Assembly: GCF_015244675.1 (NCBI RefSeq)
Contig: NZ_JABCQO010000007.1
Location: 1-64,000 of the forward strand
Length of the DNA stretch: 64,000 nt
From: Gluconobacter cerevisiae
GTDB taxonomy: Bacteria > Pseudomonadota > Alphaproteobacteria > Acetobacterales > Acetobacteraceae
Reading direction: 5' to 3'
Shown: piece by piece, positions 52,272 to 54,490 of the stretch
Position numbering within the stretch: the stretch's first letter is position 1
Layout: every line of letters begins with the position of its first letter
Position numbers and translations under genes: made by a program
The notes under the pieces: generated by a model
The model's input: only the letters and a program-made list of their open reading frames with translations
Database searches by the model: none
Told to the model about the DNA's origin: nothing

Positions 52272-52347
52272 TGGTGGAGCCAATCGGGATCGAACCGACG
52301 ACCTCCTGAATGCCATTCAGGCGCTCTCCCAACTGAGCTATGGCCCC
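52272..52347 (-). tRNA. tRNA-Ala (anticodon GGC)
   Basis: A 76-base cloverleaf on the minus strand: acceptor GGGGCCA pairs with TGGCTCC (one G-T), the D arm is AGCTCAGTTGGGAGAGC, the anticodon stem CCTGA/TCAGG closes ATGGCAT giving GGC, and the T arm contains GGTTCGATCCC. CCA is encoded. It lies close to the maf/hemE origin interval. Confidence 0.95.
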
Positions 52348-52451: not shown

Positions 52452-53063
52452 TCAAGCGTCAAGCGCCTTCAGCCTGCGCAGTTCCTCCAATAAGGGAAGC
52501 AGCGGCAGCCCCAGCACAGCGTCCTGCGCCCCTTCAACCGCCGAAAAAAGCTGTATTCCGGGGCCCTCCAGCCGATACGCCCCCACACAGGACAGGATCG
52601 CCGCTCCTTCCCGCTCCAGATAGGCCTCAAGAAACGCCTCCGAAAACTCCCGCATCGTCAGACGCGGCGATGCCAGATGCTCCCAGATTTTCTCGCCCCC
52701 CTTATAAAGAACGACCGCCGTGCGCAGAACATGCGTCCGCCCCCGCAGCCGACGCAGATGCTCCCCCGCCTCCGCCACGGAACCCGGCTTGGCAAACGCT
52801 ACCCCGTCCAGATCGAGAATCTGGTCCGCCGCAACCGTCAGGTCCTCAAACCCCGCCTCCCGTGTCGCAAGGTTTGCTTTCGCATCCGCCAGAGCAATCG
52901 CCGTTTCCGAAAGCGTCTGCCCCTGCGCCTCGCAGGATTGCCGCAGCGCCTCCTCATCGAGATCGACCGGTCTGGCCTGCACCGTAAGACCCGCATTTTC
53001 GAGAAGCATCCGCCGGGCTAATGAGCCGCTGGCAAGAATCAGGGAAGTACTGAAAGACATCAT
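52452..53063 (-). CDS. maf: Maf-like nucleotide pyrophosphatase
   Basis: House-cleaning nucleoside triphosphate pyrophosphatase of 203 residues. The N-terminal signature LILASGSLARRMLLENAGL, the conserved ADQILDLDG block with its catalytic Asp and the RRLRGRTHVLRTAV segment are in family order. The second glutamate motif reads GPGIQLFSAVEGAQDAVLGLP. In alphaproteobacteria a Maf gene commonly sits beside hemE and the replication origin, as here. It is transcribed away from the origin interval. Two ATG codons (53063, 53060) are adjacent. Confidence 0.9.
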   Translation of the reverse strand: MMSFSTSLILASGSLARRMLLENAGLTVQARPVDLDEEALRQSCEAQGQTLSETAIALADAKANLATREAGFEDLTVAADQILDLDGVAFAKPGSVAEAGEHLRRLRGRTHVLRTAVVLYKGGEKIWEHLASPRLTMREFSEAFLEAYLEREGAAILSCVGAYRLEGPGIQLFSAVEGAQDAVLGLPLLPLLEELRRLKALDA

Positions 53064-53416
53064 AATGTACGACTCCGTACTATCGACTGTAAGAACGAGG
53101 GCGAGTACTGCAAAAAACCCTGTGAAGGCATTGCGTCAGTACTGGGGTACATGGGGATAGTACCTGCCCTCCCGAAAAGAGTACCGAGTACCGTGGATTG
53201 TACGGTACACCAGCCATAACTGGGGGTTGTACACAGCCTCTCTGTGGGCAATTCGGGATAGAATCAACGACTCCCTTGCAGACTGCGGCTTCCAGAGTTG
53301 TACACAGTGTGAACAAGACGGGGTACATTTTCAGAAAGCCGGGTACCCCGGTATCCACAGGGATCATCTTAACCTCCAGCATTTCTTTCTTTTTTCTTTT
53401 ATGATTAGTGGGCGGC
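53064..53416. other. Probable chromosomal replication origin (oriC)
   Basis: Non-coding interval between maf and hemE, the usual site of the alphaproteobacterial origin. It has DnaA-box-like 9-mers: GTATCCACA at 53351-53359 (8/9 to TTATCCACA), TTGTACACA twice in GTTGTACACAG (53226-53236, 53297-53307), TGTGAACAA at 53308-53316 and TGTGGGCAA at 53243-53251. There are three GANTC (CcrM) sites at 53071, 53261 and 53269, and an AT/pyrimidine-rich stretch at 53368-53406 that could melt. Fifteen GTAC tetramers lie between 53047 and 53346. parABS is 20 kb away. Location and boxes are seen; function is inferred. Confidence 0.75.
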
Positions 53417-54490
53417 ATGATTTCGGAAAACGCACCTTCCTCACCCTCGTCGAAACCGCTTTCGAAGCCCCTTCTGCGGGCCCTCCGTGGTGAAGCCATC
53501 TGGCCGCCTCCGGTCTGGCTCATGCGTCAGGCAGGCCGCTATCTCCCCGAATTCCGCGCCATGCGCGACAAGGCCGACTTCCTGACCCGGTGCATGACCC
53601 CGGACATGGCCACCGAACTGACGATCCAGCCCATCCGCCGCTACGGCATGGACGGCGCGATCCTGTTTTCCGACATCCTGATCCTGCCCTGGGCCATGGG
53701 TCAGTCCCTGGACTTCATCGACGGCCGTGGCCCGGTCCTCAGCGCCATCCGTTCAGAAGCCGACCTCGCCCGGCTTGATCCCAAGCGCGTACAGGACGCC
53801 GTCGCACCCGTGCGCGAGACCTTGTCCCGCCTCGCAAAAGAGCTTCCCGACGTCACGACACTTCTGGGCTTCGCAGGCAGCCCGTTCACGGTCGCCTGCT
53901 ACATGGTCGAGGGCGGTGGATCGCGGGATTTCGCCGAAACCCGCCGCATGATGCAGACCAACCCGGCCCTATTCGATCGCCTGATCGACACCCTGATCTC
54001 GAGTACAGCCGAGATGCTCTGCGGCCAGATCGAAGCGGGCGCGGAAGCGGTGATGCTGTTCGATTCCTGGGCCGGAATTCTGCCCCCTTCGGCATTCCGC
54101 CGCTATGTGATCGAACCGACGCGCCAGATCGTCGCGTACATCCGCGCCCGTCACCCCAACACCCCACTCATCGGCTTTCCGCGTCTCGGCGGCATCATGG
54201 TCCGTGAATACGCGCAGAAAACCGGCATCAACACGCTGGCGCTCGACACGGTCGCCGACCCCGCTCAGATTTCCGAACTGCTGTCCAAAGACGTTCCGGG
54301 CCTCACCCTTCAGGGCAACATGGACCCGATGATCCTGTTCTCCGGCGGTGAGGCAATGATCCGCGAAGCCCAGGCCATCCGCGACGCAATGCGCGGAAAG
54401 CCCCATGTTTTCAATCTCGGACACGGCGTCATGCAGCATACGCCCCCTGAAAACGTGGCGGCCCTCGTTGAGGCGGTACGGTCTGTATGA
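53417..54490 (+). CDS. hemE: Uroporphyrinogen decarboxylase
   Basis: Cytoplasmic haem-pathway enzyme converting uroporphyrinogen III to coproporphyrinogen III. From the ATG at 53417 it has 357 residues, with WLMRQAGRYLPEFR near the N-terminus (signature 1), ILFSDILILPWAMG with the catalytic Asp, GFAGSPFTVACYMVEGG, and FNLGHGVMQHTPPENV (signature 2). A GTG at 53408 would add three residues. It is the first gene of hemE-HAD-hemJ, each overlapping the next by four bases. Its promoter must overlap the origin interval, as in Caulobacter. Confidence 0.96.
   Translation: MISENAPSSPSSKPLSKPLLRALRGEAIWPPPVWLMRQAGRYLPEFRAMRDKADFLTRCMTPDMATELTIQPIRRYGMDGAILFSDILILPWAMGQSLDFIDGRGPVLSAIRSEADLARLDPKRVQDAVAPVRETLSRLAKELPDVTTLLGFAGSPFTVACYMVEGGGSRDFAETRRMMQTNPALFDRLIDTLISSTAEMLCGQIEAGAEAVMLFDSWAGILPPSAFRRYVIEPTRQIVAYIRARHPNTPLIGFPRLGGIMVREYAQKTGINTLALDTVADPAQISELLSKDVPGLTLQGNMDPMILFSGGEAMIREAQAIRDAMRGKPHVFNLGHGVMQHTPPENVAALVEAVRSV

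What the first reader, a model, noticed from the sequence alone, without database searches (positions are those of the whole stretch)
53047..53346. Dense GTAC tetramer array in the putative replication origin
Fifteen GTAC tetramers occur in exactly 300 bp, at 53047, 53067, 53077, 53105, 53139, 53147, 53160, 53181, 53188, 53210, 53215, 53229, 53300, 53323 and 53343. About one would be expected by chance. GTAC is its own reverse complement. Two copies sit inside DnaA-box-like TTGTACACA 9-mers, but most do not. A palindromic tetramer at this density in an origin suggests a dedicated binding protein, a methylation mark, or an unusual DnaA recognition mode in acetic acid bacteria. I know of no described system matching it.
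Basis: partly seen in the sequence, partly recalled or inferred. Interest (0 to 1): 0.85.

Follow-up and report, generated by a model that had tools for sequence, protein, structure and literature searches.

The report
GTAC methylation-site array at replication origin
Acetic acid bacteria carry a conserved cluster of the four-letter word GTAC at what looks like their chromosome's starting point for copying, and it tends to come and go together with one stand-alone DNA-methylating enzyme, which points to an unstudied chemical mark on the origin.

Summary
The array is real: 15 GTAC in 53047-53346; the highest of 5,000 dinucleotide shuffles is 9. Two listed coordinates were wrong (53200 and 53205, not 53210 and 53215). 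It lies between divergent maf and hemE among DnaA-box-like sites. 68 of 80 Acetobacteraceae hemE loci have it (6-16 copies). The other 12 are Bombella, Saccharibacter and kin; in two such genomes (G032, G118) the array sits intact elsewhere and GC skew changes sign there, not at hemE. So it travels with the origin.

Second finding: a 272-aa orphan beta-class DNA methyltransferase, encoded outside this window behind Tim44 and mltA, tracks GTAC at the origin. 48 of 48 enzyme-positive intervals hold at least one GTAC, 24 of 52 negative ones do. The link survives phylogenetic correction (p=1.8e-7 in 58 genomes; 0.0012 in 34 early-branching ones), strongest of 16 palindromic tetramers. Best reading: GTAC is the enzyme's target and the array an origin methylation mark, a new member of the kind described by Blow et al. 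2016. Specificity, methylation and effect on replication are not shown. Against it: in this genome the skew minimum lies 27 kb from the array.

The parts
53047..53346 (.). array of 15 GTAC tetramers
   Evidence: count; shuffles; conservation in relatives
53139..53191 (.). conserved left core: five GTAC with fixed spacing (53139, 53147, 53160, 53181, 53188)
   Evidence: retention 0.81-1.0 in 21 aligned relatives
53227..53346 (.). conserved right core: four GTAC (53229, 53300, 53323, 53343), two of them inside TTGTACACA
   Evidence: retention 1.0 at all four in 21 aligned relatives
53227..53235 (+). DnaA-box-like 9-mer TTGTACACA (2 mismatches to TTATCCACA) with a GTAC inside
53298..53306 (+). 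DnaA-box-like 9-mer TTGTACACA (2 mismatches) with a GTAC inside
53308..53316 (-). DnaA-box-like 9-mer TTGTTCACA (2 mismatches)
53351..53359 (+). DnaA-box-like 9-mer GTATCCACA (1 mismatch); 57 of 79 intervals of this and related genomes hold a CCACAG in the last 200 bp of the extracted stretch
53243..53251 (-). weak DnaA-box-like 9-mer TTGCCCACA (2 mismatches)
53152..53160 (-). weak DnaA-box-like 9-mer CTATCCCCA (2 mismatches)
53381..53401 (.). T-rich stretch between the last DnaA-box-like site and hemE, candidate unwinding element (inferred from position and composition only)
52452..53063 (-). maf gene (Pfam Maf), left border of the origin interval
53408..54490 (+). hemE (Pfam URO-D), right border (start GTG 53408 or ATG 53417)

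Best explanation
The maf-hemE interval is most likely the chromosomal replication origin of acetic acid bacteria, and the GTAC array is a conserved part of it. GTAC is most likely the recognition site of an orphan beta-class DNA methyltransferase of 272 aa (own genome G000:C2:391054-391869, outside this window, behind Tim44-like and mltA genes). The array would then be a cluster of methylation marks: fully methylated before initiation, hemimethylated just after the fork passes, and so able to tell an old origin from a newly copied one, by changing DnaA binding (two DnaA-box-like sites contain GTAC) or by attracting a reader protein, in the manner of Dam/SeqA at E. coli oriC. Shown here: the array, its conservation, its movement together with the skew switch in two genomes, and the co-occurrence with the methyltransferase. 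Inferred: the enzyme's GTAC specificity, the methylation, and the control of initiation.
For: Array in 68 of 80 hemE loci; 9 of 14 scored GTAC sites kept in 81-100% of 21 aligned relatives, mean retention 0.72 against 0.18 for 188 other tetramers. Kept in a 34%-GC locus with 11 copies in 300 bp. In two genomes where it is missing at hemE it is intact elsewhere (10 and 11 copies) and GC skew changes sign there, at a resolution of 2.5 and 5 kb. Methyltransferase: in 25 of 25 genomes with a demonstrated array among the 42 examined, and absent from G066 and G029, which lack the array (array; enzyme). 48 of 48 enzyme-positive intervals have at least 1 GTAC against 24 of 52 negative; 24 of 24 against 23 of 50 when the acetic acid bacteria are left out. 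PGLS p=1.8e-7 (58 genomes) and 0.0012 (34 early-branching); at lambda=1 no other palindromic tetramer reaches p<0.05; the stretch 600-1450 bp upstream shows no association (p=0.83, 0.48). The gene lies behind Tim44 and/or mltA in 18 of 19 loci, so it looks vertically inherited rather than a mobile restriction-modification part. 4 of 385 class genomes have it, all in this family, and 28 hemE-upstream intervals of other families hold 0-2 GTAC, mean 0.32. Precedent for the pattern: PMC4752239 section 15.
Against: No methylation data: specificity rests on co-occurrence only. 24 of 52 enzyme-negative genomes still have 1-3 GTAC in the interval, in 10 of 52 next to a CCACAG site. 14 of 24 early-branching enzyme-positive genomes have exactly one GTAC, which is no array. 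G066, G029 and G116 also give no mltA match, so the enzyme may have gone with a larger deletion. Only one methyltransferase family was profiled, so another protein could share the pattern. At its best-fit lambda (0) AGCT is also associated, negatively (p=0.0004), and GCGC weakly (0.048). The dnaA loci of 12 genomes hold at most 3 GTAC per 300 bp (4 of the 12 begin at a contig start and lack most of the upstream DNA), so no second array there as one might expect from the E. coli case (recalled). In this genome the GC-skew minimum is at 80.1 kb of the contig, 27 kb from the array; of the 68 array loci only 33 go from negative to positive skew within 5 kb.
Confidence: 0.6

Rival explanations
1. 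A dedicated GTAC-binding protein (repressor, architectural protein or initiator helper) recognises the array without any methylation; the methyltransferase has another site and follows the same lineages by chance or through shared biology.
For: No methylation was measured; only one protein family was profiled; 24 of 52 enzyme-negative genomes keep 1-3 GTAC.
Against: Flanking bases vary (-1: A47 T28 C14 G50; +1: A48 C40 T34 G17; 139 sites of 10 loci) and spacings are irregular (5-71 bp), unusual for an ordinary transcription factor. The methyltransferase link survives phylogenetic correction also within early-branching lineages.
Confidence: 0.22
2. GTAC is the core of an unusual DnaA recognition mode of acetic acid bacteria (low-affinity boxes built on TTGTACACA).
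For: Two TTGTACACA sites contain GTAC. G066, which has no GTAC in the interval, has 14 perfect TTATCCACA boxes there (both strands) while this genome has none.
Against: 13 of the 15 GTAC sites are not in a TTGTACACA-type 9-mer on either strand; other DnaA-box-like sequences lie beside them; GTAC counts follow a methyltransferase, whereas a DnaA gene is in all 12 genomes tested, G066 and G029 included. DnaA's DNA-binding domain was not compared.
Confidence: 0.08
3. The GTAC words are ancestral sequence kept because the whole element is conserved, with no special role for the tetramer.
For: About 5% of the other tetramers are at least as well kept as the GTAC mean; five of 14 scored GTAC sites are kept in only 10-52% of relatives.
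Against: GTAC is kept far better than other tetramers (p=3.5e-7), GTACs occur at non-homologous places in Acetobacter, Komagataeibacter and Gluconacetobacter, and 11 copies stay in a 28%-GC interval.
Confidence: 0.05
4. The array regulates maf or hemE transcription rather than replication.
For: It lies between their divergent starts.
Against: In G032 the array is intact about 26 kb from hemE, between gluconate-dehydrogenase-subunit-3-like and GMC oxidoreductase genes; in G118 it has also left hemE; and the skew change goes with it.
Confidence: 0.03

Closest known systems
Orphan-methyltransferase motif clusters at replication origins (Blow et al. 2016, PMC4752239, section 15: GATC in Gammaproteobacteria, TTAA in Arthrobacter, CTCGAG in Nocardia, CTAG in Haloarchaea; the text prints CATG, the figure legend CTAG, for the last)
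   Same: Conserved cluster of a short palindrome in non-coding DNA at the origin; cluster presence correlates with an orphan methyltransferase in the same lineage.
   Different: The motif here is GTAC, the lineage Acetobacteraceae, the place maf-hemE rather than dnaA or orc1/cdc6; the enzyme's specificity is inferred here, whereas theirs came from SMRT methylomes. Here the cluster also moves with the skew switch in two genomes.
E. coli Dam methylase, SeqA and oriC GATC sites (recalled; mentioned in PMC5390034 passages)
   Same: Dense palindromic tetramers interleaved with DnaA boxes in the origin.
   Different: Different tetramer; the enzyme here has beta-class motif order (TSPPYN before DPFxGxG) while Dam is of the alpha/D12 type (recalled); no SeqA relative was sought.
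CcrM (GANTC) of Alphaproteobacteria
   Same: Related enzyme; a strong PF01555 match, presumably CcrM, is in all 42 genomes tested.
   Different: The new enzyme is a separate gene scoring 72.7 bits against the CcrM equivalog cut-off of 830; GANTC occurs 3 times in the 300 bp, GTAC 15 times.
Burkholderia cenocepacia orphan methyltransferases BCAL3494 (CACAG) and BCAM0992 (GTWWAC) (PMC7364216, abstract and passages)
   Same: Methylases whose methylated motifs lie in or near the replication origins, CACAG partly at DnaA boxes.
   Different: Other motifs; methylation was measured there. That the best PDB hits 8urk/9c3s are a GTWWAC enzyme is recalled and was not confirmed (one search found nothing).
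GTAC methylases of restriction-modification systems: M.RsaI (GTAC, m4C; PMC6256690) and M.Hpy99XII, with the HpyAXII system (GTAC, m6A; PMC3936762)
   Same: Show that GTAC-specific methylases exist, M.RsaI in an alphaproteobacterium.
   Different: Those belong to restriction systems; here no restriction gene was seen beside the enzyme and its gene neighbourhood is kept across genera. Sequences of M.RsaI and M.Hpy99XII were not compared.

Membership tests
Orphan-methyltransferase motif cluster at an origin | conserved cluster of one short motif in non-coding DNA at orthologous places | tested here: met
   68 of 80 loci with 6-16 GTAC; fixed spacing of core sites
Orphan-methyltransferase motif cluster at an origin | cluster lies at the replication origin | tested here: met
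   DnaA-box-like sites; skew sign change at the relocated array in G118 and G032. Not clean everywhere: 33 of 68 array loci go negative to positive within 5 kb, and in this genome the skew minimum is 27 kb away
Orphan-methyltransferase motif cluster at an origin | motif presence correlates with a methyltransferase | tested here: met
   24 of 52 enzyme-negative intervals still hold 1-3 GTAC
Orphan-methyltransferase motif cluster at an origin | methyltransferase is an orphan (no cognate restriction gene) | tested here: inconclusive
   neighbours in this genome are Tim44-like, MltA and di-haem cytochrome c peroxidase genes; Tim44 and/or mltA adjacent in 18 of 19 loci; the rest of the genome was not scanned for a GTAC restriction gene
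Orphan-methyltransferase motif cluster at an origin | the enzyme methylates the clustered motif | not testable with these tools
   needs a long-read methylome or restriction assay
Dam/SeqA system | GATC motif and Dam-type methylase | tested here: not met
   GATC in the acetic-acid-bacterial intervals averages 2.09 against 1.98 expected; enzyme belongs to PF01555 with beta-class motif order
Dam/SeqA system | hemimethylation reader such as SeqA | not tested
   no search made
CcrM | equivalog score and GANTC sites | tested here: not met
   72.7 bits against cut-off 830; a separate, stronger PF01555 match exists in this genome
GTAC restriction-modification system | adjacent restriction endonuclease, sporadic distribution | tested here: not met
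   no such neighbour seen in this genome; 170 of 397 family genomes, 50 of 102 genera, stable gene order

The most novel reading that the evidence does not exclude
Acetic acid bacteria run a methylation clock on their origin that is independent of both Dam/SeqA and CcrM: a vertically inherited orphan methylase, of a type suggesting N4-methylcytosine, writes GTAC marks in the origin, and an unknown reader, or DnaA itself, reads the hemimethylated state. A genome without the methylase (G066) instead carries 14 perfect DnaA boxes at the same place, a natural experiment in rewiring initiation control.
Probability: 0.3. Interest if true: 0.85.

Novelty: new member of a known kind. Interest (0 to 1): 0.7.

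Why it matters
Origin methylation control is understood in detail mainly for Dam/SeqA in Gammaproteobacteria (recalled). Here a dense, movable tetramer array and a candidate writer gene are named in industrial bacteria that can be handled genetically, in a class where CcrM is the known cell-cycle methylase. It makes the question whether origin methylation control evolved repeatedly testable with one gene deletion and one methylome, and supplies natural losses for comparison.

Tried and rejected
Regulation of hemE/maf: set aside because the array left that place in two genomes while staying intact. DnaA-only reading: most GTACs are not box-like. A second GTAC array elsewhere in the genome: none found with the triplet pattern; the other 8 triplets are single places, one being repeats beside a plasmid-type replication initiator gene. 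A GTAC cluster at dnaA: at most 3 per 300 bp in 12 genomes' loci, 4 of which lack most upstream DNA. A local inversion beside hemE to explain the 27-kb offset of the skew minimum: not supported, since gene order within 5 kb right of hemE agrees with the G. cerinus and G. morbifer loci; the offset stays unexplained. DnaA boxes at 80 kb: none of the strict forms searched.

First attempts at a phylogenetic correction reached only 24 and 26 genomes because matches to Maf were taken piecewise (one search also ended in an error on an empty subset, and the early-branching part held 2 genomes). In those runs GTAC had the smallest p, but only 2-3 genomes were enzyme-negative, and CCGG (p 0.003-0.008) and, once, TTAA (0.013) were also below 0.05. 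In one search (58 genomes) AGCT reached p=0.0004 and GCGC 0.048 at their best-fit lambda, 0.061 and 0.065 at lambda=1. The tree is from Maf alone, so it is rough. Rows dropped: of 110 family genomes 3 had no hemE match and 6 lay at contig edges or were partial, leaving 101; Maf was usable in 59 of them. G101 was left out because its interval had one GTAC and its hits were not printed, so whether its array moved is unknown. For G032 the relocated region was used.

One search replaced a reading of 30 loci on one strand only, which had given false zeros for genes on the minus strand. One search replaced the class-level counts, where one locus (L318) with a short flank had been read at the wrong offset (0-3, mean 0.43, became 0-2, mean 0.32).

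Literature: ten searches; in what they listed I saw no paper on GTAC at an acetic-acid-bacterial origin. Several searches matched 81-289 papers of which 10-15 were listed, and the library holds only open-licence PMC papers. PMC4752239: section 15 in full plus passages; PMC7364216, PMC5390034, PMC6256690, PMC3936762 and PMC5158111: passages only; the others only as listings with abstract starts.

Full report
OBSERVATION. The window stretch 53047-53346 holds 15 GTAC, two of them at 53200 and 53205 rather than the listed 53210 and 53215. The whole window has 88; elsewhere no 300-bp stretch that begins at a GTAC has more than 3. Shuffles that keep dinucleotides give 2.8 on average for the 300 bp and never more than 9 in 5,000. 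In the 3.0-Mb genome 11 of 19 close GTAC triplets are in this array.

SETTING. The array starts inside the maf gene (52452-53063, minus) and ends before hemE (53408 or 53417 to 54490, plus). Six sequences within two mismatches of TTATCCACA lie in or beside it, two of them TTGTACACA with GTAC inside, followed by a T-rich stretch. In 150.8 kb of the contig, 3 of 6 hits of TTGTNCACA are here (53227-53308) and the other three are scattered; TTATNCACA has none.

RELATIVES. One scan with HemE gave 80 Acetobacteraceae loci, the best 80 of 452. 68 have 6-16 GTAC (median 15) in the 550 bp before the hemE match; the 12 without are Bombella, Parasaccharibacter, Saccharibacter and two unnamed relatives. 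Elsewhere in the same 80 loci GTAC occurs 0.27 times per 300 bp. An alignment of 25 sequences, this window included, shows fixed spacing of the core sites and other GTACs confined to single lineages. Over 21 relatives, nine of 14 scored sites are kept in 81-100% and five in 10-52%; mean retention is 0.72 against 0.18 for 188 tetramers that do not overlap GTAC. One GTAC (53067) could not be scored because the aligner put a gap in it. The flanking bases vary on both sides (139 sites of 10 loci).

THE ARRAY MOVES WITH THE ORIGIN. Of the genomes without GTAC at hemE, two (G032 and G118) show the array intact elsewhere, with 10 and 11 copies in 300 bp. In G032 it lies about 26 kb from hemE, between a gluconate-2-dehydrogenase-subunit-3-like and a GMC oxidoreductase gene. 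A third, G101, was in the same search but its hits were not printed. G066 and G029 gave 1 and 2 scattered triplets and no array. Contig lengths and hemE positions identify G032 with Bombella dulcis TMW 2.2559 (L025), and the contig length identifies G118 with Acetobacteraceae bacterium B3987 (L021); this is inference. GC skew goes from negative to positive at the relocated array in both, at a resolution of 2.5 kb (G032) and 5 kb (G118). At hemE in the 12 array-less loci there is no such change: 11 are positive on both sides and one goes positive to negative. In G040 the sampled 20-kb skew is -0.143 at 0.75 Mb, -0.075 at 0.95, +0.025 at 1.10 and +0.149 at 1.25, so the switch is near but not resolved at the array (1.184 Mb); in the 1.7-kb locus it goes from -0.15 to +0.06 across the array. 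Over all 68 array loci the picture is mixed: 33 go negative to positive within 5 kb, 18 are negative on both sides, 17 positive on both sides, and in 63 the right side is more positive than the left.

A POINT AGAINST. In this genome the skew minimum is at 80,137 of the contig, 27 kb to the right, and third-codon-position skew changes there as well. Close relatives (for example L001-L010) also stay negative on both sides of hemE, whereas the G. cerinus, G. japonicus, G. thailandicus and G. wancherniae loci change sign. Gene order within 5 kb right of hemE is shared with G. cerinus and G. morbifer. I have no explanation.

BEYOND THE ACETIC ACID BACTERIA. HemE was found in 107 of 110 family genomes, and upstream DNA was usable in 101. 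23 acetic-acid-bacterial genomes have 8-15 GTAC in 550 bp. Early-branching Acetobacteraceae have 0-6; where one is present it often lies just before a CCACAG site (13 of 24 enzyme-positive and 10 of 52 enzyme-negative genomes by the pattern used; the 52 include G066 and G029). 28 hemE-upstream intervals from other alphaproteobacterial families have 0-2, mean 0.32; that these are origins was not tested. So the dense array looks like an elaboration of the acetic-acid-bacterial branch on an older origin.

THE METHYLTRANSFERASE. A 4-bp palindrome with free flanks suggests a methylase site, so PF01555 was profiled in 42 genomes. Besides one strong match in every genome, presumably CcrM, a second enzyme is present in all 25 genomes with a demonstrated array and absent from G066 and G029; orthology was confirmed by protein search. 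In this genome it is G000:C2:391054-391869, 272 aa, overlapping the end of mltA. TSPPYN then DPFxGxG in 19 of 19 homologues is the order of the beta class; SPPY hints at N4-cytosine (both rules recalled). It is not CcrM by the NCBIfam cut-off (72.7 against 830 bits). Tim44 and/or MltA lie next to it in 18 of 19 loci. It is in 170 of 397 family genomes and 50 of 102 genera; 4 of 385 class genomes have it, all in this family.

ASSOCIATION. Enzyme-positive origin intervals have at least one GTAC in 48 of 48 genomes, negative ones in 24 of 52; leaving out the acetic acid bacteria, 24 of 24 against 23 of 50. In the early-branching set mean GTAC is 2.04 against 0.71, and GTAC is the only one of 16 palindromic tetramers with p below 0.05 (GGCC 0.0505). 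On a Maf tree of 58 genomes, with seven parsimony changes of methyltransferase state, the PGLS p for GTAC is 1.8e-7, and 0.0012 for 34 early-branching genomes. At lambda=1 no other tetramer is below 0.05; at best-fit lambda AGCT (p=0.0004, fewer in positives) and GCGC (0.048) are, in the 58-genome set. The stretch further upstream shows nothing. Limits: one marker gene, 58 of 101 genomes, one protein family profiled. Of 14 enzyme-negative genomes checked for mltA, 10 keep it and 4 (G066, G029, G116, G108) give no match.

MECHANISM. The most economical reading is that this enzyme methylates GTAC and that the array gives the origin a replication-sensitive mark. After the fork passes, up to 15 sites become hemimethylated together, and two DnaA-box-like sites contain one. 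Whether a reader exists, or DnaA senses the mark, is unknown. G066, without enzyme and array, has 14 perfect TTATCCACA boxes in 650 bp before hemE and this genome's interval has none, as if initiation control had been rebuilt.

KNOWN SYSTEMS. Blow et al. 2016 (PMC4752239, section 15) found the same pattern for GATC, TTAA, CTCGAG and CTAG orphan methylases. Burkholderia cenocepacia origins are rich in methylase sites (PMC7364216). GTAC methylases exist in restriction systems: M.RsaI, m4C (PMC6256690) and M.Hpy99XII, m6A (PMC3936762). The present case is a new member of this kind: a new motif, a new lineage, and a cluster that relocates with the skew switch.

VERDICT. The functional role is untested.

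Noticed in passing
contig C7 of G000, about 80,137 (16 kb beyond the window end; L227): GC-skew minimum and third-codon skew change 27 kb to the right of the array, with no strict DnaA box there; close Gluconobacter relatives stay negative on both sides of hemE, while the G. cerinus group changes sign.
   Followed up: partly
L139 850-1500 (G066): A 1.95-Mb-contig Acetobacteraceae genome without the methyltransferase, an mltA match or any GTAC in the interval has 14 perfect TTATCCACA boxes (both strands) before hemE.
   Followed up: partly
L085 about 1490-1566 (G000:C5, about 175.9 kb): Plasmid-like replicon: a replication initiator protein A gene (Pfam RPA) near three repeats of the form GTGGGTgAAgGTACGTG.
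   Followed up: partly
   Followed up: yes
window 52272-52347, minus: tRNA-Ala (GGC) gene just beyond maf.
   Followed up: no
loci without a Maf match, e.g. L161 (G077): 19 of 101 genomes gave no Maf match in the fetched stretch (about 1.5 kb) upstream of hemE, so the left border of the interval varies in the family or the search missed it.
   Followed up: no
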